64,000 nucleotides of DNA from Xestospongia muta (taxonomy: Eukaryota; Porifera; Demospongiae; Haplosclerida; Petrosiidae), in assembly GCA_963693285.1 (NCBI GenBank), contig OY848918.1, positions 21,339,484 to 21,403,483 on the forward strand. Reading direction: 5' to 3'. Positions 3,890 through 53,460 of this stretch are shown piece by piece. The first letter of the stretch is position 1; each line of letters opens with the position of its first letter. A model generated the notes under the pieces. It did not search any database. It was not told the origin of the DNA and saw only the letters and a list, made by a program, of their open reading frames with translations. The position numbers and the translations under genes were made by a program.

Positions 3890-6279
3890 CTAATAAAAGC
3901 TCAAGCATTCATATGTTAGACACTTAAAAAGTTCATCAACAGGAGTTTTATCAACGAAACTAAGATTTCTAAAAAAGCTTCCTGTCTCCATCGATCCTGA
4001 ATTGCCAAGTTCAGGGAAACCATTCCCAATCAGATAAAGGTCTTCATTGGGAGTTTTAACTCTTGTACAATTTGTTAAGCAGTGATCAGCAACACAGACG
4101 TGTGTATCTGTCTGATGAAGTTGTAATAGATTAAAGCCATCAGAAAGAGTTGAGTAGCCATTCGGACATTGATACCGAAATGTCCCGAAATAGAATGGAT
4201 TGATCACTTTTGTTGGACCAGTAATGAGTTTTGAAGGTGCCCTACGAGAATCAACCAAAACAGTATTTCCAGTGATGTTATGACTTTCTCCTCCATAATA
4301 AGTTCCTAAAACACGAAGATTAGGATCTGTTTGATAGTGCGTCCAGAACCAAGTTTTAATAGTACTAAGGGGTATATTCATGTATTGATTGGAAGTAACT
4401 ACACGGATAACATCACTTTTAGCAGGACCAAAATCTTTTTGGCAAAGACTTGTATCAAGAGCATGTGCCATACAATAGTCTAATGTGACATTACGTAAAT
4501 TTTCTTTCTTCTCATTAATGTTAGTGATATTAGGGAAGTATTGTGAAGTAAAATACTTATACATTTCAGTCAAACTGTATGATAATGGAAGAGGATCGTT
4601 CTTTACTGTTTGTGCCCACTTAAAAGCAGTTCCATTTTGATCAACAGGTGGATCTCCTCCAACTTGATACATTTTGTAGCCATGACGTTGATCATTGAAT
4701 AATTGAGCAGCTTTCTTCTGAGCATCAGTTGCCAACGATGCACTGACATCAACTAATCCAGAGTATCCAGCAGAAGCTTTGATGTTGACACCAGAAGAAC
4801 AAAGGTTAGAGTAGTTTGTTGTAGAAAATTCTGAACGTACTCCAAATCGACCGCCCATTTTCAATGCTGTAACGATGTGAGTTCCATGTTCTTGAATAAA
4901 AGTCAAATAATCAAGTTTTGTTGATGAATTTAAAATCTCTGGAAGATAGTGTACAGCATTAAAGAAACCATCTGAGAATGGAGCATCATCTATTGAGGCA
5001 CCATAAGCTTCACATTGTGACTGAGAACTAATGTATAATGTCTGATGACTTTGTGTAGATTTATGAACTTCCTGATAATCAGCACTAGCAGAGAAACTTG
5101 CTGCCCAGCCCTTGAAACTTGTATCAACGTGTATTTTAAGTGAATCCATATATGAAGCTGTATCTTTGTCTATTCTGCTAGAAAATGAAAAGGAACAAGA
5201 CTGAGCATCATTGACAGTAGTATGATCTGGTATTGAATATCGACCATCAGCAGTAGTCAGACCTTGGTTATAAGTGAATCGAAAAATCCCTTGACCTAAA
5301 AACCCTGGGTCTAAACCACCTGTGTTTTGAGGATTCCCCCTAAAAATATCATAGCATGACCCCAGGTAACCAATGTTAGGATATTTTGGTGGTGAATTAG
5401 CTAAAGGTTCAAATATTACTAGAGAAAAAACATACACATAATAACTAAAATTACTATAATTATATGTCATTTAGCATAATAATAGTTAACAGTATATAAG
5501 ATAATTTTTAGCAGAAGACACATCAATTGTGACAATGCACTAGTCTATTATCATGTACATGTATAAGGTTTAGATCAATATTGCTATTTAATAATAAAAA
5601 TGTAATTTAATGAAGTCTTGTTGTTTGTATATTGTAGTAATGACAGACAGAAATTAGTTTATTATAATTTTTAACCAGTTAGTTATTTTGCCATGTACCA
5701 ATTATGTGTGGCTTGATTTCCTCCTTTCTCATCTGGAACATTTATGGCCATGTATCATACTTGTATTTTTCACTAGGTAAACAGTAAAATGATTCATAAA
5801 TGACCATCTTGATCAAGTTTATTCTTACACATTCAGTAATATTTTCTGGGCAAATGATTATCTTAAGAACTGCTCAACAACTTTTTATTTAAAAAGTTCA
5901 AACACATCCGCTACCATTGATAAGTCCGGAAGTGACATTACAATTATAAGTTACACCTAGTACAGAGAAAAGTGTCCCCTCAACTATGGCTTCCTACCGG
6001 AAGAATAAACACTGCCTAATAATTATGCACATACATAAATGTCTAAAACGTTTGGGACTAATTCGACTATGGTACAAATCGTTATGACGTTCCTTTAAAG
6101 ATATAGCTTTAAATGTTAAAAATGTTACCAAATTAAAGTTAATATAGTTTAAAATGTTAATGTAGTGGCTTACAGCACTTTTCTGTATCACATTGAGATA
6201 GTGATGACTGATCTGGAAAGAGCTGGCAGTTAACCAGTACTGGTAGAAGACATAGCACTAAAGCTTGACCGAAATCCAT
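3890..6279 (-). CDS. MACPF (perforin-like) secreted protein, type A, copy 0
   Basis: Two coding exons on the minus strand: exon 1 6279-6174 (106 bp) and exon 2 5418-3890 (1529 bp, TAG stop), joined over a 755-bp GT-AG intron in phase 1. The product is 544 aa. Exon 1 encodes a hydrophobic signal peptide and a short segment with two cysteines. Exon 2 starts with the conserved PKYPNIGYLGS block, then the MACPF core with GWAASFSASADY (about residue 140) and the signature HGTHIVTALKMGGRFG (about 213-228; Y or W is usual before GTH). After the core comes a domain with RVLGT, the FRYQCPNGYSTLSDGF motif and a terminal CLTYECLSFY. MACPF proteins oligomerise on membranes and insert beta-hairpins as pores; several N-glycosylation sequons fit secretion. 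The intron lacks the 1.5-kb insert of later copies, so this is the most ancestral copy. It is divergent with the type B gene at 6502. Confidence 0.88.
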
Positions 6280-6501
6280 TCTAAATTTTATTACGTCGTA
6301 TCAATCAACACATAGTCGCTATAATTTTTTACAAATTTATAATTCTGCAATTACAATAACGTTAAACGCAGGCAAGACTAACGATTAGTTGGCAATTCTG
6401 AATATTTATACATTGCAATACCAATCTAATATAAGCTCCTCCCTTTCCTGTAAAATATGTTAATTCATATAGTGGTATAGTTTTATCAGTAATTTGTAAA
6501 G
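6280..6501. promoter_or_regulatory. Shared bidirectional promoter of cassette copy 0
   Basis: This 222-bp interval separates the ATGs of the divergent type A and type B genes, so both promoters must lie in or near it. Two blocks are conserved with the promoters of the other cassettes: one around 6368-6392 (GCAGGC, then ACGATTAGT) and one at 6432-6453 (CTCCTCCCT followed by TGTAA). A TATAAATA-like box on the minus strand lies near 6403-6412. Start sites are inferred, not seen. Confidence 0.6.
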
Positions 6502-8178
6502 ATGTTTTTACTCTTGTGTGGATTGTTCTCGCTGTTGGTATTAAATAGTGCATTCGACGGTAAGTTGTTCCAGTTAGTACATTAAATAATTAACTTATTG
6601 CTAGAAGAATAAATATTCTATGTTGTGTTATTACATACAGATCTACCACCTCGTTTTCCAAATATTGGCTATGTTGGAAGTACTTATGACATCTTTAAAG
6701 GAAATCCTCACAGCACCACAGGGTTAGACCCTGGATTCACACTGCGCAATCTCTGCCAGTTTTCTTATAAAAAGAAAGTCACAACAGCTGATGGTCGTTA
6801 CTCAATACCAGATTACACACAAGCTACCACTTCTTCCTCGTGTAGCTTTGATTTTTCATCAGAAACAACCGACAGTATTTTCTCATATTACAATTCTTTA
6901 AAGGTGGACGTCAAGGCTGACTTCAGTGGCTGGGGTGCTAGTTTTAGTGCTAGTGCTGATTATAAAGAAGTTCATGGAAACTCTGTTTCTCACGAGTATA
7001 GATATGTGTCATCACATGCTACTTGTGAAGCATATATTGCTTCTGTTCAAATTAATACTGTTTCTCTGAATCCTGCATTTAAAAGAGCAGTGCAGAATTT
7101 GCCTTTAAAATCAACTACTTTAGAAAACTATATGGACTTCATACAACATTGGGGAACACATGCTGTCACTACTTTGACCATGGGGGGTCGTTATGGAGTT
7201 CAGTCATCAGTAACAAATAATGACTACACCACTATGGTATCAACTGGATTAGATATCAAAGCAGCTGCTAAGTATTCTGGTATTGTTAGTTTAAATGCTA
7301 ATGCAGCCACTAGCAGTCAGAAAGAACAAGCTGAACAATTTGAAAGTTATCGCACAGACTATCAGATTTATCAAATTGGTGGTAAACCCCCACTCAATGA
7401 AACAACTTCAACCTTTGAATGGGCACAGACTGTCAAAAATAACCCTCTACCTCTACTATATACTCTATTACCACTCACAGACTATTTTACATCACAATAC
7501 TTTCCTAATGACAAAAGTATATCAATAAAACAGTCTAACCTGTATAAAGCGACTATTGAATACTGTCAGTCACTGGAACTACCTGATATTACCTTCTGTA
7601 ATAATGATGGTCCCACATCTACTCCAAAAATTGAAGTTACCTTTGCAAGAAGCTTCAAATATTTACCATGCAGTCCATCTCATTGCTCAATTTATACTCC
7701 AATATTACATAACCCCAATCACAGAATTCTTGGGACAGCAAAAAAGATTTATGATAAAGATTCTGCAATTGTGATAGTAAATGGCAAAAATGCTCCTAAT
7801 AAGCTGATACGAAATGCAAAAGGCTGGGATAAAGTATATTCCAGTTCTGGTGGTCATGCTTCTGCCTTTAGACCAAAATGCGATGATGGGTTTTTAAGTG
7901 TATCTGACATTTTATGTTGTGGTAATAATACTGACTGTCTTAGTGATCTTCCATTTACTCTACCCTGTGTTGCTCTTGAATGTTTGACTGAGTGTGGATA
8001 TTATATACATACACTCAATCTTGATAATGGTAATATTCCTGTAATGACTTTTGGAAATGGAGTCTTTGGAAATAACTTTCGATATTTTGGTTATAACTTT
8101 ATTAGATTTATACAAAATCTCACACTTTCACACAATGAACATAAATGCTTAAATTTTAATTGTTTATTGTTTATATAA
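6502..8178 (+). CDS. MACPF (perforin-like) secreted protein, type B, copy 0
   Basis: Exon 1 6502-6559 (58 bp) encodes a 19-residue hydrophobic signal peptide. An 81-bp GT-AG intron in phase 1 follows, then exon 2 6641-8178, giving 531 aa. The ATG at 6502 is preferred over the one at 6625 because the latter lies inside the intron and would give no signal peptide. The MACPF core holds GWGASFSASADYKEV (about residue 115) and the signature HWGTHAVTTLTMGGRYG (about 189-205). A C-terminal domain follows with RILGT, a VIVNGKNAPNKLIR block, FRPKCDDGFLSVSD and the terminal CLNFNCLLFI. Overall order matches type A although identity is only about 40 percent by eye. It is the most divergent type B copy here, with no lesion. 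Confidence 0.88.
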
Positions 8179-8279
8179 TTAATCAGATACTAATTAATAT
8201 GTAATTTTTTATAAAAATTAGATAATTCAAAAGTCTACTAGCTAGTGATAGAAATCATCCATCCATAGTCTGCTCTGGT

Positions 8280-8283
<4 letters not shown>

Positions 8284-8317: not shown

Positions 8318-8319
<2 letters not shown>

Positions 8320-9751: not shown

Positions 9752-9775
9752 TGTCTACTAATACACATCTTTTAA

Positions 9776-11513: not shown

Positions 11514-14500
11514 TTAATAAAAGCTCAAGCAGTCATATGTTAGACACTTAAAAAGTTCATCAAAAGGAGTGTTATCATCTATATCAGGATCTCTAAAAAA
11601 GCTTCCAGTCTCCATCGATCCTGAATTGCCAAGTTCAGGATAACCATCCCCAATCATGAACATTCCAGATTCTTTGACTTCAATTTTTGTACATTTTGTT
11701 AAACACTGATCAGCAACACACACATGTGTATCTGCCTGATGAAGTTCATAAACATTAAAGCCATCAGAAAGAGTTGAGTAGCCATTCGGACATTTATACC
11801 GAAATGACATAGCAAATAATGGATTGATCACACCTATTGCACCAGTAATGAGTTTTGAAGGTGCCCTACGAGAATCAACTAAAGCAGTATATCCAGTAAT
11901 GTTTTTATTTGCTCCTCCATAATAAGTTCCTAAAACACGAAGGTTAGGATCTGTTTGATAATGAGTCCAGAATGCACTTTTAGCAATATATAAGGGTATA
12001 TTTATGTATTGATTGGACGTAACTACTCGGATAACGTCACTTTTAGCAGGACCAAAATCTTTATGACAAAGACTTGTATCAAGAGCATGTGCCATACAAT
12101 AGTCCAATGTGACATTACGTAAATTTTGTTTCTTCTTATTAATGTTAGGGATATCAGGGAAGTATTGTGAAGTAAAGTACTTATACATTTCAGTCAAAGT
12201 GTATGATAATGGAAGAGGATTGTCTTTTACTGTTTGTGCCCACTGAAAAGCAGTTCCATTTTCATCCACAGGTGGGTTTCCTCCAACTTGATATATTTTG
12301 TAGCTGCGGCGTTGATCATTGAATGATTGAGCAGCTTTTTTCTGAATATCAGTTGCCAACGATGCACTGACATCAACTGTTCCAGAGTATCCTGCAGAAG
12401 CTTTGACGTTGATACCAGAAGAACAAAGGTTAGAGTAGTTTGTTGCAGAAATTTCTGAACGCACTCCAAATCGACCGCCCATTTTCAATGCTGTAACAAT
12501 GTGAGTTCCATACTGTTCAATAAATGTCAAATAAACAGAATTTGTGGACGAGTTTAAAACCTCGGGAAGATAACGTACTCCATTGACAAAACCATCTGAG
12601 AATGGAGCATCATCTACTGAGGCACCATATGCTTCACACTGTGCCTGAGAACTGATGTATAATGTCTGACGACTTTGTGTAGATTGATGAACTTGCTGAT
12701 AATCTGCACTAGCAGAGAAACTTGCTCCCCATCCCTTGAAACTTGCATCAACGTGTATTTTAAGAGAATCCATGTATGAAGCTGTATCTTTGTTGACTCT
12801 GCTAGAAAATGAAAAGGAACAGGACTGAGCATCATTGACAGTAGTATGATCTGGTATTGAGTATCGACCATCAGCAGTAGTCAGACCTTGGTTATAACTG
12901 AATCGAAAAATCCCTAAACCTAAAAATCCCGAGTCCAAACCACCTGTGTTTTGAGGATTTCCCCTAAAAATATCATAGGATGACCCCAGATAACCAATGT
13001 TAGGATATTTTGGTGGTGATTCAGCTAAAGGTTCATATATTACTAGAGAAAAAAAGCACAATAAATAAAATTATTATAATTACATGTCATTAAACATAAT
13101 TATAGTTAGAAAGACAATGCATTACTCTTTTATTATCAAATACATGCTGAAGGTTAGATTAATTTTTAATAATAAAAGTATGTAGTTTCCTATAGTTTTG
13201 TTGTTCATTGCTAATTTGTTTGATGTAATTTCTAATTATTTAGCTTGTCATCATATGTTAACTATGTGAGGCTTTATCTCCTCACATTTTATCTAGAACA
13301 CTTGCAGGCATATATTATGTTTGTCTTTTTCACTACATAACTATGAAAAGATACATACATTAGCATTTTCATTACTGTTACTCACATCAATAGTTTATAC
13401 ATATATATATGATTAATCTCAAAAACTGCTCGACAATTTTCTTTCATTTAAAATTTTAAACAAGTTGAAAATATTGAATTTTCTATTTGTGCTCTTCAAA
13501 TAGATATGGACGGCTTGTGTAGAAAAAAGAAAGGAATTTAAACATGTTCGATACATTGATTAATCAGGAAGTGACATTTCTTTAACAATTACAGGTGTTC
13601 TAACAATTAACTATGGCTTCCTACCGGAAGAATAATATAACTAATAATAAATGAAAAAATGCACTAAAGTGCTCAACCTCGCTGCGGTGCCCAGTGTAAA
13701 TCTATACTGCAGAGTGCATGTAACATGTACATTTAAGACTGGACAAGGTGTGGTCAAATTATTGATGGAATCACATGATGCACATTGCAAATTGTTGTTT
13801 GATTTTTATTTTATTTTATTTATATTCTTTAGCTGCTCTAAGGTAAAACACTAAAGAAACAACTAGAAGAAAGTCTATTTATATAACAAAGCAAGAAACC
13901 TAAAAATAGAATATACCAAATAAGGAATATACTAAATATAAATAAAAGCTCTAAACTATGATATGGTAATGAAGTAAACAGTTCAGAAAGCAGTTTTATG
14001 TCTTGTTTAGGACGAATCTTCCCTCCGCCCGATTGGCGATAAGAATATTGACGGGGAGTGGGCGGGTTTAGATCTTGATTTCCTCCTGTTGCTCATCAGA
14101 GGAGTGTTTCGAGTTGTTTACGGATACTATCTTCAGTTACCTTCCGGAGTGAAATACCTTATTCTTGCTGGGGCACGTAGGCACACCAGCCACAGCAACT
14201 GAATGCTTATTATAGACAAGGCTCAGCAGCAAGACAGATTTTAGTCACAGAACTCACTCCAGGCTGTCCAGACACCTGAAGCGCAACTAACGAGATGGAA
14301 ACTGTGACAGTAATTCGACTAGCTTTTCTTATCTTTAGATTTAGATAAGCCTTCCTTCAAGAAGTGCTAACAAAGACCTGGTGCTTGTCCTAAAGAGAAA
14401 TAGCTCTAGGATGTAAAAATGCTTGAGTGCCTTTTAATGGCTCAGCATTTCTCTTCAATCAAAGGGAAAAAAGCTTTGTCGTTTACTGGGTACTTTGCAC

Positions 14501-15396
14501 TCTCATTGATATGTCTGTGAAGCTGTAACTGAGTAAGTAATAGTATCATTCAATTGACAAGCAAGATTAAGTGCTAGATTCGGTGATGAATGTTTCTCTG
14601 AGCCTTTACATGACGCTTTAAATGTTTCAATATTTCATATACAAAATTTATCTATTAGTAGCAGTTTTTTCAGTGCTTTGAGACGTTTCTTGAAAACGTT
14701 ACTTTGCAAGTCCACAAAACACTTTTCAGAACTTTTCTAACGATTGCTTCAACCAACGGCCTTCTGTCTTGCTAATCCCTATTCCTTTAAAATTCTCTAC
14801 AGCATACTAAAAAATCTCCACATTAATTTTTTTTTACTTTTCAAGAAACGGCACTTTACCTCTGCAGCCTGAAAATTCTTTTGCGAGTTTTAAGCTTTCA
14901 TTTTCTTTGACGATGTTCTTGATACTACTGTTGTAAAGTCTGCATGTTTTTCTATTCGTTGCTAAATGTTGGTAGCTGCTAACGCTTTGCTTGCCAATTT
15001 ATAGCAGTTCAAAAAAACAGGCAGTGCAGACACACACACACACAAACACACTGACTAACTATAGTACCCTCGCTTTGCGCCCACGCACAGCGAGGTTAAC
15101 TACCATAAAAATTCTGGTCCATCGTTTAGTGCATACAATACGCATGTACACGAAGAATGCGTAAAACGCCTGCAAGTAGTGTGCTAATGGTAGAAATCTT
15201 TACGCAGTTTCGTCAAAATAAAGTTTTAAATTTAAAAAATGTTATTAAATTAAGCTTCATATACTTTTAATTATTATTTTAGTGACTTACAGCACTCTTC
15301 TGTATCACATTGAGACAGTAATGATTGCTCTGGAAAGAGGTGGCAGTTAACCAGTACTGGTAGAAGACACATCATTAGAATTTGAGCGAAATCCAT
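11514..15396 (-). CDS. MACPF (perforin-like) secreted protein, type A, copy 1
   Basis: Exon 1 15396-15291 (106 bp) and exon 2 13042-11514 (1529 bp) join in phase 1 over a 2248-bp GT-AG intron, giving 544 aa. Exon 1 encodes a signal peptide of about 17 residues and a short stretch ending in a Cys pair (CDTEEC). Exon 2 carries PKYPNIGYLGS, GWGASFSASADYQ (about 139-151), the signature QYGTHIVTALKMGGRFG (about 212-228), the KASAGYSGTVDVSASL second insertion region, and a C-terminal domain (about 372-544) with RVLGTYYGG, FRYKCPNGYSTLSDGF and CLTYDCLSFY. The ATG near 13061 is intronic and not the start. Compared with copies 2 and 3 there are about a dozen amino-acid changes, for example an IAKSAF versus TIKSAF segment. 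The intron is enlarged by a 1.5-kb insert absent from copy 0. Confidence 0.9.
13655..15150. mobile_element. Intronic insertion of about 1.5 kb with imperfect inverted ends
   Basis: This stretch accounts for the growth of the type A intron from 755 bp (copy 0) to about 2.25 kb. Its ends carry related inverted motifs: TGCACTAAA and AACCTCGCTG at the left (about 13663-13686), and TTTAGTGCA and CAGCGAGGTT at the right (about 15088-15133). It is less AT-rich than its surroundings, with GC-rich patches (14025-14060) and a (CA)n run near 15033-15052. No transposase frame is recognised, so if mobile it is non-autonomous. The boundaries are estimates. Confidence 0.45.
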
Positions 15397-15582
15397 TCTG
15401 ATATTTATTGTATATATTCGTTTTAATGTTTAGGGCAGGCGCAGGCCAAACTGACGATTAGTCTTGGAAATACCTTATTATAAATTCGATTCCTCGTCTA
15501 AAATTGTTCGTCATAAACTCCTCCCTCTCTTGTAAGTCTATTTAAGAGAAAAACGCGTTTTATAATTTATTTCACTGACAAG
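15397..15582. promoter_or_regulatory. Shared bidirectional promoter of cassette copy 1
   Basis: A 186-bp gap separates the two ATGs. Conserved blocks are at 15441-15462 (GCAGGC, then ACGATTAGT) and 15514-15535 (AACTCCTCCCTCTCTTGTAA core). A TATTTAAG box at 15538-15545 sits about 40 bp before the type B ATG. A TATAAT-like box on the minus strand at about 15476-15484 could serve type A. Confidence 0.65.
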
Positions 15583-17264
15583 ATGTCTTTACTCTTTTAC
15601 GGATTGTTATCACTGCTAGCATTAGGGAGTACACTCGATGGTAAGTTGTTCTTTTGTTCACTCAGTATGTGTACACAAAGTAATTAAATTATTGCCTGGA
15701 GGATAAATCTTTCATTTTGCTTTACATACATACAGATTCACCACCTCGTTTTCCTAATATTGGTTATGTTGGAAGCACTTACAACATTTTCAAAGGAAAT
15801 CCTCGTAGCACCACAGGATTAGACCCTGGATTTACTCTGCGCAATCTCTGCAAATTTTCCTATCAAAATAACAACGAAACAGTTGATGGCCGTTATTCTA
15901 TTCCAGATAACACACGTGCTACCGCTTCTTCCACGTGTAGCTTTGATTTTACGTCAGAAACAACTGACAGTACTTCCTCATATTATGATTCTTTAAAGGT
16001 GGACGTCAGTGTTGACTTTGGTGGTTGGGGTGCTAGTTTTAGTGCTAGTGCTGATTACAAAGAAGTTCATGAAAACTCAGCTTCTCACGAGTATAGATAC
16101 GTGTCGTCACATGCTACTTGTCAAGCATATATTGTTTCTGTTGAAATAGAAGATAAGACTTTGAATCCTGCATTTAAAAAAGCAGTGCAGAATCTCCCGT
16201 CAGAAACAACTACTTTAGAAGACTATGTCGACTTAATACAACATTGGGGAACACATGTTGTCACTTCTGTGACTATGGGGGGTCGTTATGGAGTTCAGTC
16301 ATCAGTAACAAACAATGACTACACCTCTATGGTATCAACTGGATTAGATATCAAAGTAGCAGCTAAATACTCTGGTATTGTTAGTTTAAATGCTAATGCA
16401 ACAGCTAGCAGTGACAAAAAAAAAGCTAAAGAATTTGAAAGTTATCGTACAGACTACCAGATTTATCAGGTTGGTGGTAAACCCCCACTCAGTGAAACAA
16501 CGTCAACTTTTGAATGGGCACAGACCGTCAAAGATAACCCTCTTCCTTTACTATATACATTATTTCCGCTTAGAAACTATATTACATCACAATACTTTCC
16601 TAATGACAAAGATATATCAATAAAGCAGTCAAACCTGTATAAAGCGACTACTCAATATTGTCAGTCACTGGAACTACCTGATATTACCTTTTGTATAAAC
16701 AATGGTCCAACGTCTACTCCAAAAATCGAAGTCACCTTTGCAAAAAAATTTAGACCTCTACCATGTAGTGATTCTCATTATTCATTTTATACTCCAATTT
16801 TAGATAACCCTAATTACAGAATCCTTGGAACATTGAAAAAATCCCAAGAAAAAGATTCTACAGTTGTGATAGTAAATGGCCAAAACCATCCTAATGAGCT
16901 GATACGAAGTGCAAAAAGCTGGGATAAGATATACTCGAGGCCTGATGGTCGTATGTCTGCCTTTAGACCAAATTGTGATGATGGATTTTTAAGTGTCTCT
17001 GATACGTTTTGTTGTGGTCAAAACATTGACTGTTTTGACTCTCTTCCAACCACCCTTCCCTGCATTGCTGTTCAATGTTTGTCAGAGTGCGGACATTATG
17101 GATTTTATGATAATACTAATATTTCTATGATATCTTTCGGAAATGGAGTCCTAGGAAATAACTTTCGCTATTATGGTTATACGTTTGCTAGGTATATGCA
17201 AGATTTCGCAATGCCACCAAGTGCAAAGAAATGCTTGAATTATAATTGTTTAACATTTATATAA
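15583..17264 (+). CDS. MACPF (perforin-like) secreted protein, type B, copy 1
   Basis: Exon 1 15583-15640 (58 bp) encodes the signal peptide. A 95-bp GT-AG phase-1 intron follows, then exon 2 15736-17264 (1529 bp), giving 528 aa. The mature protein begins with the SPPRFPNIGYVGS block and has GWGASFSASADYKEV (about residue 116) and the signature HWGTHVVTSVTMGGRYG (about 189-205). The C-terminal domain has RILGT, VIVNGQNHPNELIR, FRPNCDDGFLSVSD, a cysteine cluster and the terminal CLNYNCLTFI. Secretion and membrane pore formation are inferred from the MACPF family. It differs from copy 2 at two residues only (T for M in SETTSTF, N for K in CCGQNID). The ATG near 15717 is intronic. Confidence 0.9.
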
Positions 17265-18822
17265 TTAATTTAATACTTGTTTATGTACCATCACAGCAAC
17301 AATCACCATGATAGAAACATATGTATCATCATAGTAACAATTACCATAGCAACATTATCATGATATTACGAATTGGTTGTTTTAAGACTGAAAGCAATAG
17401 CTTTATACATTATGATATCAATTTTGTTACAAACATTTTAAAACCTTCCAATTATTTTAAAACTTTCTATGCATAATTGGTAAATGTAAAATTTAAAGAT
17501 TATATGCATCAGTTTACTTATTTTTGAAACATAAATGATTTGATTATAATTATAAGGAATGATCAGGAAAGGTAGGCTAAGCTTTTATAAACTTATGGAT
17601 ACAACCGATAACTTTTGTGTACACCTCCTGACACATAGATTGACAAGTAAAGCACACCATGTTATATAAGTGCAAACTGTATACATACCATAGCCTATTT
17701 ACTTAAGTAATATACCTTTTATAGTTAAGATACTGTAAATGACTATCAAGAAAGATGACTAGTACTAGTGACATATATATGAAGTTCATTCCTGCATACA
17801 CTTCACTGTTTGTATGTAGTTAGACAATGTGATAGAGGAATTCAGTAGGATACATGGAGGACATCAACCAAATCCTCATTGTCTAGCTAGTTGTCAGACA
17901 ATGTGTCAACTAGGATATCATCATTAGCAGTTTATCAACAATGTTCATTGGATATTTAAGTACAAACATCAGTAAAATATAACAAGAAACTAATAAGAAA
18001 ATGACTAATTCCAAAGACTTAGTCCACCAAGACATTTGATACTGATGGGAGTTAATCTGTTCCTTTTTCTTTATAGTAAGAAATCTATTGCAATATCTCT
18101 TTTACAATGTAGTTATCAGTAATGGGAATTGATTTGCTGTTTTCTTCACTAAGTCCAATCCCAAAACCAACTCGATATTTAATTTATATCTATTGTTTAG
18201 TTTCCATGCATAATTACCATTCTATAAAGGACCAATAGAATCACAAATTCTAGGAATTATGTGGTCCATATAAAAAGCAACGGTACATATGTTACCATAA
18301 CAACAATTACCTTAGCAACAACATGTGTGTTCTCATAGCAATTATTACCATGGCAACGATTACAATTGATTTTTTAGTAATAACAATTATTATTATTATC
18401 AATGACGATGACCTTACAGCAGAGCTGAAGGTCTACAACAAAATTTTAGATGTTTTATGTATTCATATAGTATCAGTTACTATGGTGACAATAACCATAG
18501 CAACGATTGCCATCATACTGTAACAATTACCATGACAACATTACCATAGAGACAACATATACATCACCATATCAAGACTTACCAAAGCAACATCATTATG
18601 ACATTAATGTAAAGCCAAGTATCACTTTAGGACTTTAAAAATTGTATTGTAGCATTATCTTTCAACATTCTTACTGGCATTGTAAAACCTACCAGTTATT
18701 TAATAAATAACTGTTGTCAAACTTCCATGAAAAACTGCCAATAACAGAATTAAGATTTGATCTGGTGCTTTGTTTAGTATATTATGTAAGTCAATTGCCT
18801 ACTCTCGTTCACAGACTAGCTA
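17265..18822. repeat. Type B 3' flank: degenerate ACCATAGCAACAATT repeats and first copy of an internal block
   Basis: Degenerate units of about 15 bp related to ACCATAGCAACAATT recur at 17285-17355 and 18290-18600. Between them, 17580-18060 is the first copy of a block that recurs at 19190-20040. A 66-codon frame at 18323-18523 arises from the degenerate repeats and is not a credible gene. The whole stretch is repeated at 32936-34480, 53461-55015 and 61241-62800. Confidence 0.7.
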
Positions 18823-19180: not shown

Positions 19181-19189
19181 TCTTGTTAA

Positions 19190-27181: not shown

Positions 27182-30100
27182 TTAATAAAAGCTCAAGCAG
27201 TCATATGTTAGACACTTAAAAAGTTCTTCAAAAGGAGTGTTATCATCTATATCAGGATCTCTATAAAAGGTTCCTGTCTCCATCGATCCTGAATTGCCAA
27301 GTTCAGGATAACCATCCCCAATCATGAACATTCCATATTCTTTGACTTCAATTTTTGTACATCTTGTTAAACATTGATCAGCAACACACACATGTGTATC
27401 TGCCTGATGAAGTTCATAAACGTTAAAGCCATCAGAAAGAGTTGAGTAGCCATTCGGACATTTATACCGAAATGACCCAGCAAATAATGGATTGATCACA
27501 CCTATTGCACCAGTAATAAGTTTTGAAGGTGCCCTACGAGAATCGACTAAAGCAGTATATCCAGTAATGTTTTTATTTGCTCCTCCATAATAAGCTCCTA
27601 AAACACGAAGGTTAGGATCTGTTTGATAATGAGTCCAGAATGCACTTTTAATAGTACTTAAGGGTATATTTATGTATTGATTGGACGTAACTACTCGGAT
27701 AACGTCACTTTTAGCAGGACCAAAATCTTTATGACAAAGACTTGTATCAAGAGCATGTGCCATACAATAGTCCAATGTGACATTACGTAAATTTTGTTTC
27801 TTCTTATTAATGTTAGGGATATCAGGGAAGTATTGTGAAGTAAAGTACTTATACATTTCAGTCAAAGTGTATGATAATGGAAGAGGATTGTCTTTTACTG
27901 TTTGTGCCCACTGAAAAGCAGTTCCATTTTCATCCACAGGTGGGTTTCCTCCAACTTGATATATTTTGTAGCTGCGACGTTGATCATTGAACGATTGAGC
28001 AGCTTTTTTCTGAATATCAGTTGCCAACGATGCACTGACATCAACTGTTCCAGAGTATCCTGCAGAAGCTTTGACGTTGATACCAGAAGAACAAAGGTTA
28101 GAGTAGTTTGTTGCAGAAATTTCTGAACGCACTCCAAATCGACCGCCCATTTTCAATGCTGTAACAATGTGAGTTCCATACTGTTCAATAAATGTCAAAT
28201 AAACAGATTTTGTGGACGAGTTTAAAACCTCGGGAAGATAACGTACTCCATTGACAAAACCATCTGAGAATGGAGCATCATCTACTGAGGCACCATATGC
28301 TTCACACTGTGCCTGAGAACTGATGTATAATGTCTGACGACTTTGTGTAGATTGATGAACTTGCTGATAATCTGCACTAGCAGAGAAACTTGCTCCCCAT
28401 CCCTTGAAACTTGCATCAACGTGTATTTTAAGAGAATCCATGTATGAAGCTGTATCTTTGTTGACTCTGCTAGAAAATGAAAAGGAACAGGACTGAGCAT
28501 CATTGACAGTGGTATGATCTGGAATTGAATATCGACCATCAGCAGTAGTTAGACCTTGGTTATAAGTGAATCGAAAAATCCCTAAACCTAAAAACCCCGA
28601 GTCCAAACCACCTGTGTTTTGAGGATTTCCCCTAAAAATATCATAGGATGACCCCAGGTAACCAATGTTAGGATATTTTGGTTTTGATTCAGCTAAAGGT
28701 TCATATATTACTAGAGAAAAAAAGCACAATAAATAAAATTATTATAATTGCATGTCATTAAACATAATTATAGTTAGAAAGACAATGCATTACTCTTTTA
28801 TTATCAAATACATGCTAAAGGTTAGATTAATTTTTAATAATAAAAGTATGTAGTTTCCTATAGTTTTGTCGTTCATTGCTAATTTGTTTGATGTAATTTC
28901 TAATTATTTAGCTTGTCACCATATGTTAGCTATGTGAGCCTTTATCTCCTCACATTTTATCTAGAACACTTGCAGGCATATATTATGTTTGTCTTTTTCA
29001 CTATATAACTATAAAAAGATACATACATTAGCATTTTCATTACTGTTACTCACATCAATAGTTTATACACATATATATGATTAATCTCAAAAACTGCTCG
29101 ACAATTTTCTTTCATTTAAAATTTTAAACAAGTTGAAAATATTAAATTTTCTATTTGTGCTCTTCAAATAGATATGGAAGACTTGTGTAGAAAAAAGAAA
29201 GGAATTTAAACATGTTCGATACATTGATTAATCAGGAAGTGACATTTCTTTAACAATTACAGGTGTTCTAACAATTAACTATGGCTTCCTACCGGAAGAA
29301 TAATATAACTAATAATAAATGAAAAAATGCACTAAAGTGCTCAACCTCGCTGCGGTGCCCAGTGTAAATCTATACTGCAGAGTGCATGTAACATGTACAT
29401 TTAAGACTGGACAAGGTGTGGTCAAATTATTGATAGAATCACGTGATGCACATTGCAAACTGTTGTTTGATTTTTATTTTATTTTACTTATATTCTTTAG
29501 CTGCTCTAAGGTAAAACACTAAAGAAACAACTAGAAGAAAGTCTACTTATATAACAAAGCAACAAACCTAAAAATAGAATATACCAAATAAGGAATATAC
29601 TAAATATAAATAAAAGCTCTAAACTATGATATGGTAATGAAGTAAACTGTTCAGAAAGCAGTTTTATGTCTTACTTAGGACGAATCTTCCCTCCTCCCGA
29701 TTGGCGATAAGAATATTGACGGGGAGTGGGCGGGTTTAAATTTCCTCCTGTTGCTCATCAGAGGAGTGTTTCGAGTTGTTTACGGATACTATCTTCAGTT
29801 ACCTTCCGGAATGAAATACCTTTTTCTTGCTAGGGCACGTAGGCACACCAGTCACAGCAACTGAATACTTATTATGGACAAGGCTCAGCAGCAAGACAGA
29901 TTTTAGTCACAGAACTCACTCCAGGCTGTCCAGACACCTGAAGCGCAACTAACGAGATGGAAACTGTGACAGTAATTCGACTAGCTTTTCTTATCTTTAG
30001 ATTTAGATAAGACTTCCTTCAAGAAGTGCTAACAAAGACCTGGTGCTTGTCCTAGAGAGAAATAGCTCTAGGATGTAAAAATGCTTGAGTGCCTTTTAAT

Positions 30101-30690: not shown

Positions 30691-30723
<33 letters not shown>

Positions 30724-31067
30724 GACAGACTACAGTACCCTCGCTTTGCACCCACGCACAGCGAAGTTAACTACCATAAAAATTCTGGTCCATCGTTTAG
30801 TGCATACAATACGCATGTACAAGAAGAATGCGTAAAACGCCTGCAAGTAGCGTGCTAATGGTAGAAATCTTTACGCAGTTTCGTCAAAATAAAGTTTTAA
30901 ATTTAAAAAATGTTATTAAATTAAGCTTCATATAATTTAAATTATTATTTTAGTGACTTACAGCACTCTTCTGTATCACATTGAGACAGTAATGATTGCT
31001 CTGGAAAGAGGTGGCAGTTAACCAGTACTGGTAGAAGACACATCATTAGAATTTGAGCGAAATCCAT
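27182..31067 (-). CDS. MACPF (perforin-like) secreted protein, type A, copy 2
   Basis: Exon 1 31067-30962 (106 bp) and exon 2 28710-27182 (1529 bp) are separated by a 2251-bp phase-1 GT-AG intron; the product is 544 aa. Architecture is as in copy 1: signal peptide and Cys pair in exon 1, PKYPNIGYLGS, GWGASFSASADYQ, QYGTHIVTALKMGGRFG, then the C-terminal domain ending CLTYDCLSFY. The protein of copy 3 is identical in exon 2; a few silent differences separate the two. Relative to copy 1 it has, among others, K for P in ESPPKY, T for S in FSYNQ, A for T in LGTYYGG, and FYRD for FFRD. No lesion is visible. Confidence 0.9.
29323..30820. mobile_element. Intronic insertion in type A, copy 2
   Basis: Same insert as at 13655-15150, with the (CA)n run near 30691-30720 longer. 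It contains small frames (29319-29522, 30406-30597) that have no recognisable product and differ in length between copies. Boundaries are estimates from comparison with the short intron of copy 0. Confidence 0.45.
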
Positions 31068-31253
31068 TCTGATATTTATTGTATATATTCGTTTTAATGT
31101 TTAGGGCAGGCGCAGGCCAAACTGACGATAAGTCTTGGAAATACCTTATTATAAATTCGATTCCTCGTCTAAAATTGTTCGTCATAAACTCCTCCCTCTC
31201 TTGTAAGTCTATTTAAGAGAAAAACGCGTTTTATCATTTATTTCACTGACAAG
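31068..31253. promoter_or_regulatory. Shared bidirectional promoter of cassette copy 2
   Basis: A 186-bp interval, nearly identical to 15397-15582. The first conserved block reads ACGATAAGT instead of ACGATTAGT. The CTCCTCCCTCTCTTGTAA block and TATTTAAG box are kept. Confidence 0.65.
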
Positions 31254-32935
31254 ATGTCTTTACTCTTTTACGGATTGTTATCACTGCTAGCATTAGGGAG
31301 TACACTCGATGGTAAGTTGTTCTTTTGTTCACTCAGTATGTGTACACAAAGTAATTAAATTATTGCCTGGAGGATAAATCTTTCATTTTGCTTTACATAC
31401 ATACAGATTCACCACCTCGTTTTCCTAATATTGGTTATGTTGGAAGCACTTACAACATTTTCAAAGGAAATCCTCGTAGCACCACAGGATTAGACCCTGG
31501 ATTTACTCTGCGCAATCTCTGCAAATTTTCCTATCAAAATAACAACGAAACAGTTGATGGCCGTTATTCTATTCCAGATAACACACGTGCTACCGCTTCT
31601 TCCACGTGTAGCTTTGATTTTACGTCAGAAACAACTGACAGTACTTCCTCATATTATGATTCTTTAAAGGTGGACGTCAGTGTTGACTTTGGTGGTTGGG
31701 GTGCTAGTTTTAGTGCTAGTGCTGATTACAAAGAAGTTCATGAAAACTCAGCTTCTCACGAGTATAGATACGTGTCGTCACATGCTACTTGTCAAGCATA
31801 TATTGTTTCTGTTGAAATAGAAGATAAGACTTTGAATCCTGCATTTAAAAAAGCAGTGCAGAATCTCCCGTCAGAAACAACTACTTTAGAAGACTATGTC
31901 GACTTAATACAACATTGGGGAACACATGTTGTCACTTCTGTGACTATGGGGGGTCGTTATGGAGTTCAGTCATCAGTAACAAACAATGACTACACCTCTA
32001 TGGTATCAACTGGATTAGATATCAAAGTAGCAGCTAAATACTCTGGTATTGTTAGTTTAAATGCTAATGCAACAGCTAGCAGTGACAAAAAAAAAGCTAA
32101 AGAATTTGAAAGTTATCGTACAGACTACCAGATTTATCAGGTTGGTGGTAAACCCCCACTCAGTGAAACAATGTCAACTTTTGAATGGGCACAGACCGTC
32201 AAAGATAACCCTCTTCCTTTACTATATACATTATTTCCGCTTAGAAACTATATTACATCACAATACTTTCCTAATGACAAAGATATATCAATAAAGCAGT
32301 CAAACCTGTATAAAGCGACTACTCAATATTGTCAGTCACTGGAACTACCTGATATTACCTTTTGTATAAACAATGGTCCAACGTCTACTCCAAAAATCGA
32401 AGTCACCTTTGCAAAAAAATTTAGACCTCTACCATGTAGTGATTCTCATTATTCATTTTATACTCCAATTTTAGATAACCCTAATTACAGAATCCTTGGA
32501 ACATTGAAAAAATCCCAAGAAAAAGATTCTACAGTTGTGATAGTAAATGGCCAAAACCATCCTAATGAGCTGATACGAAGTGCAAAAAGCTGGGATAAGA
32601 TATACTCGAGGCCTGATGGTCGTATGTCTGCCTTTAGACCAAATTGTGATGATGGATTTTTAAGTGTCTCTGATACGTTTTGTTGTGGTCAAAAAATTGA
32701 CTGTTTTGACTCTCTTCCAACCACCCTTCCCTGCATCGCTGTTCAATGTTTGTCAGAGTGCGGACATTATGGATTTTATGATAATACTAATATTTCTATG
32801 ATATCTTTCGGAAATGGAGTCCTAGGAAATAACTTTCGCTATTATGGTTATACATTTGCTAGGTATATGCAAGATTTCGCAATGCCACCAAGTGCAAAGA
32901 AATGCTTGAATTATAATTGTTTAACATTTATATAA
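31254..32935 (+). CDS. MACPF (perforin-like) secreted protein, type B, copy 2
   Basis: Exon 1 31254-31311 and exon 2 31407-32935 join in phase 1 over a 95-bp intron; 528 aa. Signal peptide, MACPF core with HWGTHVVTSVTMGGRYG and C-terminal Cys-containing domain are as in copy 1. Two residues differ from copy 1 (M in SETMSTF, K in CCGQKID). Divergent with the type A gene ending at 31067. Confidence 0.9.
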
Positions 32936-34480: not shown

Positions 34481-34482
34481 CT

Positions 34483-47706: not shown

Positions 47707-50700
47707 TTAATAAAAGCTCAAGCAGTCATATGTTAGACATTTAAAAAGTTCTTCAAAAGGAGTGTTATCATCTATATCAGGATCTCTATAAAAGGTTCCT
47801 GTCTCCATCGATCCTGAATTGCCAAGTTCAGGATAACCATCCCCAATCATGAACATTCCATATTCTTTGACTTCAATTTTTGTACATCTTGTTAAACATT
47901 GATCAGCAACACACACATGTGTATCTGCCTGATGAAGTTCATAAACGTTAAAGCCATCAGAAAGAGTTGAGTAGCCATTCGGACATTTATACCGAAATGA
48001 CCCAGCAAATAATGGATTGATCACACCTATTGCACCAGTAATAAGTTTTGAAGGTGCCCTACGAGAATCGACTAAAGCAGTATATCCAGTAATGTTTTTA
48101 TTTGCTCCTCCATAATAAGCTCCTAAAACACGAAGGTTAGGATCTGTTTGATAATGAGTCCAGAATGCACTTTTAATAGTACTTAAGGGTATATTTATGT
48201 ATTGATTGGACGTAACTACTCGGATAACGTCACTTTTAGCAGGACCAAAATCTTTATGACAAAGACTTGTATCAAGAGCATGTGCCATACAATAGTCCAA
48301 TGTGACATTACGTAAATTTTGTTTCTTCTTATTAATGTTAGGGATATCAGGGAAGTATTGTGAAGTAAAGTACTTATACATTTCAGTCAAAGTGTATGAT
48401 AATGGAAGAGGATTGTCTTTTACTGTTTGTGCCCACTGAAAAGCAGTTCCATTTTCATCCACAGGTGGGTTTCCTCCAACTTGATATATTTTGTAGCTGC
48501 GACGTTGATCATTGAACGATTGAGCAGCTTTTTTCTGAATATCAGTTGCCAACGATGCACTGACATCAACTGTTCCAGAGTATCCTGCAGAAGCTTTGAC
48601 GTTGATACCAGAAGAACAAAGGTTAGAGTAGTTTGTTGCAGAAATTTCTGAACGCACTCCAAATCGACCGCCCATTTTCAATGCTGTAACAATGTGAGTT
48701 CCATACTGTTCAATAAATGTCAAATAAACAGATTTTGTGGACGAGTTTAAAACCTCGGGAAGATAACGTACTCCATTGACAAAACCATCTGAGAATGGAG
48801 CATCATCTACTGAGGCACCATATGCTTCACACTGTGCCTGAGAACTGATGTATAATGTCTGACGACTTTGTGTAGATTGATGAACTTGCTGATAATCTGC
48901 ACTAGCAGAGAAACTTGCTCCCCATCCCTTGAAACTTGCATCAACGTGTATTTTAAGAGAATCCATGTATGAAGCTGTATCTTTGTTGACTCTGCTAGAA
49001 AATGAAAAGGAACAGGACTGAGCATCATTGACAGTGGTATGATCTGGAATTGAATATCGACCATCAGCAGTAGTTAGACCTTGGTTATAAGTGAATCGAA
49101 AAATCCCTAAACCTAAAAATCCCGAGTCCAAACCACCTGTGTTTTGAGGATTTCCCCTAAAAATATCATAGGATGACCCCAGGTAACCAATGTTAGGATA
49201 TTTTGGTTTTGATTCAGCTAAAGGTTCATATATTACTAGAGAAAAAAAGCACAATAAATAAAATTATTATAATTGCATGTCATTAAACATAATTATAGTT
49301 AGAAAGACAATGCATTACTCTTTTATTATCAAATACATGCTAAAGGTTAGATTAATTTTTAATAATAAAAGTATGTAGTTTCCTATAGTTTTGTCGTTCA
49401 TTGCTAATTTGTTTGATGTAATTTCTAATTATTTAGCTTGTCACCATATGTTAGCTATGTGAGCCTTTATCTCCTCACATTTTATCTAGAACACTTGCAG
49501 GCATATATTATGTTTGTCTTTTTCACTACATAACTATAAAAAGATACATACATTAGCATTTTCATTACTGTTACTCACATCAATAGTTTATACACATATA
49601 TATGATTAATCTGAAAAACTGCTCGACAATTTTCTTTCATTTAAAATTTTAAACAAGTTGAAAATATTAAATTTTCTATTTGTGCTCTTCAAATAGATAT
49701 GGAAGACTTGTGTAGAAAAAAGAAAGGAATTTAAACATGTTCGATACATTGATTAATCAGGAAGTGACATTTCTTTAACAATTACAGGTGTTCTAACAAT
49801 TAACTATGGCTTCCTACCGGAAGAATAATATAACTAATAATAAATGAAAAAATGCACTAAAGTGCTCAACCTCGCTGCGGTGCCCAGTGTAAATCTATAC
49901 TGCAGAGTGCATGTAACATGTACATTTAAGACTGGACAAGGTGTGGTCAAATTATTGATAGAATCACGTGATGCACATTGCAAACTGTTGTTTGATTTTT
50001 ATTTTATTTTACTTATATTCTTTAGCTGCTCTAAGGTAAAACACTAAAGAAACAACTAGAAGAAAGTCTACTTATATAACAAAGCAACAAACCTAAAAAT
50101 AGAATATACCAAATAAGGAATATACTAAATATAAATAAAAGCTCTAAACTATGATATGGTAATGAAGTAAACTGTTCAGAAAGCAGTTTTATGTCTTACT
50201 TAGGACGAATCTTCCCTCCTCCCGATTGGCGATAAGAATATTGACGGGGAGTGGGCGGGTTTAAATTTCCTCCTGTTGCTCATCAGAGGAGTGTTTCGAG
50301 TTGTTTACGGATACTATCTTCAGTTACCTTCCGGAATGAAATACCTTTTTCTTGCTAGGGCACGTAGGCACACCAGTCACAGCAACTGAATACTTATTAT
50401 GGACAAGGCTCAGCAGCAAGACAGATTTTAGTCACAGAACTCACTCCAGGCTGTCCAGACACCTGAAGCGCAACTAACGAGATGGAAACTGTGACAGTAA
50501 TTCGACTAGCTTTTCTTATCTTTAGATTTAGATAAGACTTCCTTCAAGAAGTGCTAACAAAGACCTGGTGCTTGTCCTAGAGAGAAATAGCTCTAGGATG
50601 TAAAAATGCTTGAGTGCCTTTTAATGGCTCAGCATTTCTCTTAAATCAAAGGGAAAAAAGCTTTGTCGTTTACTGGGTACTTTGCACTCTCATTGATATG

Positions 50701-51215
50701 TCTGTGAAGCTGTAACTGAGTAAGTAATAGTATCATTCAATTGACAAGCAAGATTAAGTGCTAGATTCGGTGATGAATGCTTCTCTGAGCCTTTACATGA
50801 CGCTTTAAATGTTTCAATATTTCATATACAAAATTTATCTATTAGTAGCAGTTTCTTCAGTGCTTTGAGACGTTTCTTGAAAACGTTACTTTGCAAGTCC
50901 ACAAAACACTTTTCAGATCTTTTCTAATGATTGCTTCAACCAACGGCCCTCTGTCTTGCTAATCCCTATTCCTTTAAGATTCTCTACAGCATACTAAAAA
51001 ATCTCCACATTAATTTTTTTTACTTTTCAAGAAACGGCACTTTACCTCTGCAGCCTGAAAATTCTTTTGCGAGTTTTAAGCTTTCATTTTCTTTGACGAT
51101 GTTCTTGATACTACTGTTGTAAAGTCTGCATGTTTTTCTATTCGTTGCTAAATGTTGGTAGCTGCTAACGCTTTGCTTGCCAAGTTATAGCAGTTCAAAA
51201 AAACAGGCAGTGCAG

Positions 51216-51248
<33 letters not shown>

Positions 51249-51592
51249 GACAGACTACAGTACCCTCGCTTTGCACCCACGCACAGCGAAGTTAACTACC
51301 ATAAAAATTCTGGTCCATCGTTTAGTGCATACAATACGCATGTACAAGAAGAATGCGTAAAACGCCTGCAAGTAGCGTGCTAATGGTAGAAATCTTTACG
51401 CAGTTTCGTCAAAATAAAGTTTTAAATTTAAAAAATGTTATTAAATTAAGCTTCATATAATTTAAATTATTATTTTAGTGACTTACAGCACTCTTCTGTA
51501 TCACATTGAGACAGTAATGATTGCTCTGGAAAGAGGTGGCAGTTAACCAGTACTGGTAGAAGACACATCATTAGAATTTGAGCGAAATCCAT
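47707..51592 (-). CDS. MACPF (perforin-like) secreted protein, type A, copy 3
   Basis: Exon 1 51592-51487 (106 bp) and exon 2 49235-47707 (1529 bp) join over a 2251-bp phase-1 intron; 544 aa. The exon 2 product is identical to that of copy 2, with a few silent or flanking changes only. It has the signal peptide, the signature QYGTHIVTALKMGGRFG and the terminal CLTYDCLSFY. Divergent with the type B gene at 51779. Confidence 0.9.
49848..51345. mobile_element. Intronic insertion in type A, copy 3
   Basis: Same insert as at 29323-30820, with the long (CA)n run at about 51216-51242. No transposase recognised. Confidence 0.45.
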
Positions 51593-51778
51593 TCTGATAT
51601 TTATTGTATATATTCGTTTTAATGTTTAGGGCAGGCGCAGGCCAAACTGACGATAAGTCTTGGAAATACCTTATTATAAATTCGATTCCTCGTCTAAAAT
51701 TGTTCGTCATAAACTCCTCCCTCTCTTGTAAGTCTATTTAAGAGAAAAACGCGTTTTATCATTTATTTCACTGACAAG
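51593..51778. promoter_or_regulatory. Shared bidirectional promoter of cassette copy 3
   Basis: A 186-bp interval that looks identical to 31068-31253, including the ACGATAAGT variant, the CTCCTCCCTCTCTTGTAA block and TATTTAAG. Confidence 0.65.
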
Positions 51779-53460
51779 ATGTCTTTACTCTTTTACGGAT
51801 TGTTATCACTGCTAGCATTAGGGAGTACACTCGATGGTAAGTTGTTCTTTTGTTCACTCAGTATGTGTACACAAAGTAATTAAATTATTGCCTGGAGGAT
51901 AAATCTTTCATTTTGCTTTACATACATACAGATTCACCACCTCGTTTTCCTAATATTGGTTATGTTGGAAGCACTTACAACATTTTCAAAGGAAATCCTC
52001 GTAGCACCACAGGATTAGACCCTGGATTTACTCTGCGCAATCTCTGCAAATTTTCCTATCAAAATAACAACGAAACAGTTGATGGCCGTTATTCTATTCC
52101 AGATAACACACGTGCTACCGCTTCTTCCACGTGTAGCTTTGATTTTACGTCAGAAACAACTGACAGTACTTCCTCATATTATGATTCTTTAAAGGTGGAC
52201 GTCAGTGTTGACTTTGGTGGTTGGGGTGCTAGTTTTAGTGCTAGTGCTGATTACAAAGAAGTTCATGAAAACTCAGCTTCTCACGAGTATAGATACGTGT
52301 CGTCACATGCTACTTGTCAAGCATATATTGTTTCTGTTGAAATAGAAGATAAGACTTTGAATCCTGCATTTAAAAAAGCAGTGCAGAATCTGCCGTCAGA
52401 AACAACTACTTTAGAAGACTATGTCGACTTAATACAACATTGGGGAACACATGTTGTCACTTCTGTGACTATGGGGGGTCGTTATGGAGTTCAGTCATCA
52501 GTAACAAACAATGACTACACCTCTATGGTATCAACTGGATTAGATATCAAAGTAGCAGCTAAATACTCTGGTATTGTTAGTTTAAATGCTAATGCAACAG
52601 CTAGCAGTGACAAAAAAAAAGCTAAAGAATTTGAAAGTTATCGTACAGACTACCAGATTTATCAGGTTGGTGGTAAACCCCCACTCAGTGAAACAATGTC
52701 AACTTTTGAATGGGCACAGACCGTCAAAGATAACCCTCTTCCTTTACTATATACATTATTTCCGCTTAGAAACTATATTACATCACAATACTTTCCTAAT
52801 GACAAAGATATATCAATAAAGCAGTCAAACCTGTATAAAGCGACTACTCAATATTGTCAGTCACTGGAACTACCTGATATTACCTTTTGTATAAACAATG
52901 GTCCAACGTCTACTCCAAAAATCGAAGTCACCTTTGCAAAAAAATTTAGACCTCTACCATGTAGTGATTCTCATTATTCATTTTATACTCCAATTTTAGA
53001 TAACCCTAATTACAGAATCCTTGGAACTTTGAAAAAATCCCAAGAAAAAGATTCTACAGTTGTGATAGTAAATGGCCAAAACCATCCTAATGAGCTGATA
53101 CGAAGTGCAAAAAGCTGGGATAAGATATACTCGAGGCCTGATGGTCGTATGTCTGCCTTTAGACCAAATTGTGATGATGGATTTTTAAGTGTCTCTGATA
53201 CGTTTTGTTGTGGTCAAAACATTGACTGTTTTGACTCTCTTCCAACCACCCTTCCCTGCATTGCTGTTCAATGTTTGTCAGAGTGCGGACATTATGGATT
53301 TTATGATAATACTAATATTTCTATGATATCTTTCGGAAATGGAGTCCTAGGAAATAACTTTCGCTATTATGGTTATACATTTGCTAGGTATATGCAAGAT
53401 TTCGCAATGCCACCAAGTGCAAAGAAATGCTTGAATTATAATTGTTTAACATTTATATAA
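51779..53460 (+). CDS. MACPF (perforin-like) secreted protein, type B, copy 3
   Basis: Exon 1 51779-51836 and exon 2 51932-53460 join in phase 1; 528 aa. It is identical to copy 2 except N for K in CCGQNID, so it combines the M of copy 2 (SETMSTF) with the N of copy 1. That mosaic suggests gene conversion or allelic mixing. Domains are as in copy 1. Confidence 0.9.

What the first reader, a model, noticed from the sequence alone, without database searches (positions are those of the whole stretch)
3890..53460. Amplified head-to-head pair of two different secreted MACPF genes
Every complete cassette (3890-8178, 11514-17264, 27182-32935, 47707-53460) keeps one type A and one type B gene in the same divergent orientation, with ATGs 186-222 bp apart. 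The two types share architecture but only about 40 percent identity by eye, so the pair is older than the duplications and has been kept together. Inference: A and B may be co-expressed subunits of one hetero-oligomeric pore. Two-component MACPF systems are known elsewhere (for example pleurotolysin A/B, where only B is MACPF), but a pair of two MACPF subunits from one promoter would be notable.
Basis: partly seen in the sequence, partly recalled or inferred. Interest (0 to 1): 0.9.

Follow-up and report, generated by a model that had tools for sequence, protein, structure and literature searches.

The report
Ancient head-to-head pair of perforin-like genes
An animal genome, probably a sponge's, carries about fifteen copies of a back-to-back pair of two different secreted perforin-like genes, a pairing that is old and seems to be shared with other species, so the two proteins probably work together, perhaps as two subunits of one pore, which has not been tested.

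Summary
All 4 complete cassettes in the window have a type A gene on minus and a type B gene on plus, start codons 186-222 bp apart. The surrounding 263 kb hold 15 such pairs, all in that orientation, plus 2 lone B genes. A and B are about 35-43% identical. In a 71-row tree they form two groups (support 100/100 and 100/99), each with genes from other assemblies, and their distances mirror each other (r = 0.94, 16 linked pairs). Of 28 A-bearing contig lengths in the protein listings, 13 also bear a B (inference from equal lengths). Six gaps tested share a 10-base element; one old pair (p1) lacks it. Both proteins model as complete MACPF proteins, nearest TgPLP1, MPEG1 and perforin. The C-terminal domain changes faster than the MACPF part. 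Joint function is likely; one mixed A-B pore is plausible but untested. Against it: an intact A gene elsewhere beside what looks like a dead B, and two lone B genes. Stonustoxin and CDCL toxins already show two MACPF/CDC-type subunits working together, so this is a new variant of a known kind.

The parts
3890..5418 (-). Pair 1, type A main exon (MACPF plus C-terminal domain)
   Evidence: splice acceptor read by eye from the sequence
6174..6279 (-). Pair 1, type A exon 1 (signal-like peptide, predicted)
6280..6501 (.). Pair 1, 222-bp region between the two start codons; CTCCTCCC element at 6436-6443 (+)
6502..6559 (+). Pair 1, type B exon 1 (signal-like peptide, predicted)
6641..8178 (+). Pair 1, type B main exon
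   Evidence: acceptor read by eye
11514..13042 (-). Pair 2, type A main exon
15291..15396 (-). Pair 2, type A exon 1 (predicted)
15397..15582 (.). Pair 2, 186-bp region between start codons; CTCCTCCC element at 15518-15525 (+)
   Evidence: element position from the identical gap type p8
15583..15640 (+). Pair 2, type B exon 1 (predicted)
15736..17264 (+). Pair 2, type B main exon
27182..28710 (-). Pair 3, type A main exon
   Evidence: boundary by homology with pair 2
30962..31067 (-). Pair 3, type A exon 1 (predicted)
31068..31253 (.). Pair 3, 186-bp region between start codons; CTCCTCCC element at 31189-31196 (+)
   Evidence: element position from the identical gap type p9
31254..31311 (+). 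Pair 3, type B exon 1 (predicted)
   Evidence: start codon; end by homology with pair 2
31407..32935 (+). Pair 3, type B main exon
   Evidence: boundary by homology with pair 2
47707..49235 (-). Pair 4, type A main exon (modelled as P0109)
   Evidence: boundary by homology with pair 2
51487..51592 (-). Pair 4, type A exon 1 (predicted)
51593..51778 (.). Pair 4, 186-bp region between start codons; CTCCTCCC element at 51714-51721 (+)
   Evidence: element position from the identical gap type p9
51779..51836 (+). Pair 4, type B exon 1 (predicted)
   Evidence: start codon; end by homology with pair 2
51932..53460 (+). Pair 4, type B main exon (modelled as P0110)
   Evidence: boundary by homology with pair 2
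1274..1729 (-). Type A fragment, second half of the MACPF domain only
3093..3494 (-). Type A fragment, part of the MACPF domain
60818..61240 (+). Type B C-terminal fragment, identical over 140 residues to the pair-4 B

Best explanation
A and B are two anciently diverged, secreted MACPF proteins that are expressed together from one short shared promoter region and act as one effector. Shown by sequence: fixed divergent pairing, complete MACPF domains in both, a conserved element between the start codons in most pairs, co-duplication as a unit, and constrained MACPF parts with a faster-changing C-terminal domain. Predicted: secretion. Inferred: A and B are expressed and secreted together, the variable C-terminal domains recognise a target surface, A and B assemble in one mixed ring (alternating, or initiator and propagator), and both contribute strands to a beta-barrel pore, in defence against microbes or competitors. 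The roughly fifteen pairs would be a repertoire of variants that differ mainly in targeting.
Against: No expression, biochemical or interface data. An intact A gene on C1 stands beside only a weak B-like relic, and 2 of 17 B genes in the array are alone. Only 4 of 484 aligned positions are sharply class-specific, so no clear subunit specialisation; each protein looks able to form a pore alone. Tandem duplication copies a linked pair as a unit without any need for functional coupling. p1 lacks the intergenic element. Net charges of A and B are both negative in all 16 pairs, not complementary. 15 of 28 A-bearing contig lengths show no B, though the listings are incomplete.
Confidence: 0.5

Rival explanations
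1. A and B are co-expressed from the shared region but form separate homomeric pores with different targets, two weapons fired together.
For: Each protein has all MACPF parts and models as a complete MACPF protein; only 4 of 484 positions are class-specific; the C-terminal part is the most variable and changes fastest; an A gene persists without an adjacent intact B.
Against: Does not by itself explain why the two classes stay in one-to-one pairs over such depth, though co-regulation could suffice.
Confidence: 0.27
2. Passive linkage: the inverted pair spreads by tandem duplication as a unit and tight linkage is rarely broken, so no functional coupling is needed.
For: Recent block duplications of 50.9, 14.25 and 14.8 kb carry whole pairs; lone B genes exist.
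Against: Old pairs keep both members open and constrained; an intergenic element is conserved in most pairs; A and B seem to share contigs in other assemblies.
Confidence: 0.12
3. One member is a regulator: it caps, blocks or chaperones the other, for example to protect the producer.
For: Near-constant pairing of two paralogues; some two-component CDCL operons carry a separate immunity protein (PMC11169675, passages), so protection from own pores is a real need.
Against: Neither class has lost the MACPF core columns, and both membrane-inserting segments are less variable than the C-terminal part in both classes.
Confidence: 0.07
4. The proteins have a MACPF fold but do not form pores (structural, developmental or storage role), as suggested for astrotactin.
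For: A shared fold does not show lysis.
Against: The closest folds are pore formers; gene amplification and a fast-changing C-terminal part suit defence.
Confidence: 0.04

Closest known systems
MPEG1 / perforin-2 and TgPLP1 (perforin-like MACPF proteins)
   Different: A and B show no C-terminal hydrophobic anchor by eye, have a different Cys-rich C-terminal part, and come as two paired paralogues. This genome also has separate MACPF ORFs of 732-752 aa with an apparent anchor
GNIP1Aa (bacterial MACPF protein, 6fbm)
   Same: Foldseek's top match of both models (E 1.1e-20 and 2.2e-20)
   Different: Alignment over both domains has rmsd about 12, so the domain arrangement differs or is not comparable
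Stonustoxin alpha/beta of stonefish
   Same: Two paralogous MACPF/CDC subunits acting together as a heterodimer (PMC8704401, passages)
   Different: About 700 residues with FAT, THX and PRYSPRY domains; sntx genes described as clustered or tandem (PMC10566576, passages), the word head-to-head not occurring there
Two-component CDC-like toxins (CDCL long/short) of Bacteroidota
   Same: Two related MACPF/CDC-superfamily subunits from adjacent genes, with a mechanism like the complement MAC (PMC11169675, passages)
Aegerolysin/MACPF pairs of fungi (pleurotolysin A/B)
   Same: 5'-5' gene pair for a two-component pore, 672-1121 bp apart in the species quoted (PMC9505663 and PMC8624791, passages)
   Different: Only one partner is MACPF
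Complement C6-C9
   Same: Hetero-oligomer of several MACPF paralogues (established knowledge)
   Different: No TSP1, LDLRA or EGF match in the four A and B proteins scanned

Membership tests
MACPF superfamily | PF01823 above the curated cut-off | tested here: met
   4 of 4 proteins scanned, 93.9-125.2 bits against 21.5
MACPF superfamily | GTH...GG core and two membrane-inserting segments (motif recalled) | tested here: met
   G, T, H and first G columns invariant, second G nearly so, in alignments of 64 and 60 rows; both segments present in A and B
MACPF superfamily | MACPF fold | tested here: met
MPEG1 / perforin-2 | C-terminal transmembrane anchor | tested here: not met
   No hydrophobic anchor at the C-terminus of A or B (read by eye, no predictor run)
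Perforin-1 | EGF-like and C2 domains | tested here: inconclusive
   MACPF is the only Pfam family over its cut-off, but the fold of the C-terminal domain was barely tested
Complement C6-C9 | TSP1, LDLRA, EGF modules | tested here: not met
   None in the Pfam scan at E up to 1
Stonustoxin-type toxins | C-terminal PRYSPRY domain | tested here: not met
   None in the Pfam scan at E up to 1
Two-subunit MACPF pore (functional class) | Both subunits are MACPF paralogues encoded together | tested here: met
Two-subunit MACPF pore (functional class) | Mixed assembly in one oligomer | not testable with these tools
   No complex prediction or biochemistry was available
Bidirectional gene pair | Transcription starts less than 1 kb apart on opposite strands (abstracts of PMC2648788 and PMC7817982 in the listing) | tested here: inconclusive
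   Start codons are 177-222 bp apart, but transcription starts were not mapped

The most novel reading that the evidence does not exclude
An early-branching animal carries an obligate two-subunit MACPF pore without the extra domains of complement, encoded as divergent A/B pairs and amplified to a repertoire of pairs whose targeting domains diversify in step while the pore machinery stays fixed: an independent complement-like attack system.
Probability: 0.33. Interest if true: 0.85.

Novelty: new variant of a known kind. Interest (0 to 1): 0.62.

Why it matters
Hetero-oligomeric MACPF pores are known from complement, fish venom and gut bacteria, but how a second subunit arises and becomes fixed is hard to see in those systems. 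Here two paralogous subunits have stayed in one divergent unit through many duplications and apparently across species, with the pore part constrained and the C-terminal part changing quickly. If A and B co-assemble, this gives many natural A/B combinations in which partner specificity can be tested directly, and a candidate lytic immune or competition system in what is probably an early-branching animal.

Tried and rejected
Prokaryote genome contigs and viral contigs were scanned with the 64-row alignment A1: 70 and 161 pattern matches, none confirmed, so the orientation of A and B in other species could not be read. The linkage there rests on equal contig lengths in the listings, which is inference. 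I left out of that count the window's own P0003 (contig 61627) and P0101 (basal, long branch); 15 of the 28 A-bearing contig lengths show no B. One of the 13 shared lengths, 272587, holds proteins nearly identical to array members and is probably this species; several others may be near relatives or the same species as each other.

A third protein search with A1 gave 82 hits, one of them new (P0111). The organism was not identified. A PF00112 search and three short exons, two of them with a YAF form that I recall from silicatein-like proteases of sponges, are weak support for a sponge; none of the three shows the silicatein serine.

Net charge of A and B covaries over 15 pairs (Pearson 0.68, p 0.005; the pair c10457 was left out, and A of c12294 is a partial protein), but phylogeny was not controlled, so I do not use it as evidence of contact. 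Class-specific residues gave 4 of 484 positions and no pattern. The first exon finder picked wrong B starts in several pairs and was replaced; in turn chose a later donor for B in seven pairs (p6, p8, p9, p10, p12, p13, p14). For these I use the donor (p6, p8, p12) and of the sequence, the others by homology. One search also proposed an A exon 1 for the lone B s2; it does not resemble A exon 1 and I dropped it. The first tree (127 rows) warns of long branches; I rely, 71 rows that I chose from the same set, leaving out near-copies and the longest branches, though it too lists four long rows. In one search contigs with several copies (867554, 1608662, 813199, 272587) were left out as ambiguous. 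In one search the dN/dS of distant pairs rests on near-saturated dS; dS is also higher in the C-terminal part in many comparisons, which gene conversion in the MACPF part could cause. No formal test of positive selection was made. The six gaps of the motif test were chosen by me; p1 (which lacks the element), p6 and p9 (near-copies of p8) were not in it, nor was p7.
Full report
What is there. The window is part of contig C2 of a 158-Mb genome in 28 contigs. Four of the eight proteins were scanned with Pfam and all four match MACPF well above the cut-off. A PF01823 search of the genome gave 56 matches, 38 of them in one cluster on C2 (the count is a lower bound). I read C2:21200001-21463000 from adjacent pieces and sorted its MACPF ORFs by similarity to one A and one B of the window. 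There are 15 couples, 15 of 15 with A on minus and B on plus, two lone B genes (starting near 21215330 and 21226551), and several fragments.

Gene structure. Both A and B have a short first exon with a hydrophobic, signal-like peptide, an intron, and one long exon that holds the rest. In pair 2 I read donors and acceptors by eye and both introns are in phase 1; for the others a script that required this phase found matching first exons. The two first exons face each other, start codons 177-222 bp apart in 14 of 15 couples; in p7 the B splice donor is lost. Some B homologues in other assemblies start with a signal-like peptide joined directly to the mature start, which supports secretion. Six gaps share AAGCTCCTC and AGCTCCTCC within one mismatch, while 0 of 500 shuffled sets did. 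An exact CTCCTCCC is in 7 of the 9 distinct A-B gaps, three of these being near-copies; p17 has a variant and p1 lacks it.

Age of the pair. In a tree of 71 rows A (33 rows) and B (30 rows) are each one side of a branch with support 100/100 and 100/99. Both contain genes from this genome and from other assemblies, and their subgroups largely mirror each other. For 16 linked pairs, 7 from this genome and 9 joined by equal contig length, A and B distances correlate at 0.94 (permutation value 0.00005). In the listings, 13 of 28 A-bearing contig lengths also bear a B, among them seven contigs of 4.9-12.3 kb; one of the 13 (272587) is probably this species. So A and B separated before these lineages did and seem to have travelled together. 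Orientation outside this genome could not be read.

Recent history. A 50.9-kb block carrying three pairs is repeated at 99.93% identity, a 14.25-kb block at 99.94%, and 14.8-kb blocks at 98.96%. These may be very young or partly an assembly artefact; the older pairs do not depend on them. Between old pairs dS is about 0.9-1.6 and dN/dS about 0.2-0.4. Among four younger A genes the MACPF part has dN/dS 0.32-0.52 and the C-terminal part 0.69-0.88 (6 comparisons); among the B genes of the same four pairs 0.22-0.41 and 0.38-0.70 (6 comparisons), in some of these by a small margin; over all 21 comparisons the C-terminal value is the higher one each time. No formal test for positive selection was made. 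Two couples are damaged, and in both A and B are both damaged; separate A and B fragments also exist.

Structure. Models of A and B have mean pLDDT 92.0 and 91.8. By Z the best matches of A are TgPLP1 (5own 24.9, rmsd 2.9, 261 aligned), MPEG1 (6u2l 24.5, 3.3, 309) and perforin (3nsj 23.3, 3.4, 297), and of B 5own 23.9 (3.2, 260) and MPEG1 (6u2l 23.6, 3.5, 300), with 3nsj at 22.0 (3.6, 295); rows within 1 of each other are tied. Foldseek's first match of both is bacterial GNIP1Aa. The C-terminal domain is barely tested by these. Both proteins keep the core and both membrane-inserting segments; variability is highest in the C-terminal part, and only 4 of 484 positions are sharply class-specific.

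What speaks against an obligate mixed pore. An A gene on C1 (L029) has an open frame of 526 codons and no intact B in the 5.5 kb read or in the genome search nearby; a weak B-like stretch (best E 0.003) lies on the other strand about 0.9 kb upstream, where a partner would be, and looks like a decayed B. Two of 17 array B genes have no A. Partners could act in trans, but these cases show that adjacency is not strictly needed. Tandem duplication of a linked unit explains much of the array without any functional coupling.

Reading. The best account is a co-regulated, two-protein secreted MACPF effector with a constrained pore part and a variable C-terminal part that probably sets the target. Mixed assembly is my favoured but untested step. 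Relatives in kind exist: stonustoxin alpha/beta (PMC8704401), CDCL long/short (PMC11169675), and 5'-5' aegerolysin/MACPF pairs in fungi (PMC9505663, PMC8624791); of these papers I saw passages only. In the rows shown by ten full-text searches (several matched hundreds of papers, of which 8-25 were listed) I saw no report of a divergent pair of two MACPF genes; the library lacks most subscription journals and preprints. The organism is not identified; a sponge is likely but not shown.

Noticed in passing
C2:21286295-21337146 and 21347926-21398780 (the second lies in the window at 8443-59297): A 50.9-kb block repeated at 99.93% identity, and C2:21407237-21421484 / 21421571-21435823 at 99.94%: very recent duplication or assembly artefact.
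   Followed up: partly
window 18794-19187, 34455-35144, 54990-55679, 62770-63163: A 74-bp tandem repeat with 5.2 or 9.2 copies, in the repeated part downstream of three cassettes and of the lone B fragment.
   Followed up: no
L029:4236-4388 (C1, + strand): Weak B-like relic beside an open lone A gene, in the orientation expected of a former pair.
   Followed up: partly
window 38755-39069 (-): ORF with a sub-threshold match to an integrase core domain, possibly a mobile element.
   Followed up: no
C10:5116803, C13:2828458 (L030, L031): Longer MACPF ORFs of 752 and 732 aa with an apparent C-terminal membrane anchor by eye, resembling MPEG1.
   Followed up: partly
homologues P0058, P0060, P0064, P0067, P0070 and others: In other assemblies the B gene appears to lack the intron between signal peptide and mature protein.
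   Followed up: no
C2:21303234, 21323765, 21364868, 21385399 (-): Broken type A fragments, one in each of four repeated units.
   Followed up: no
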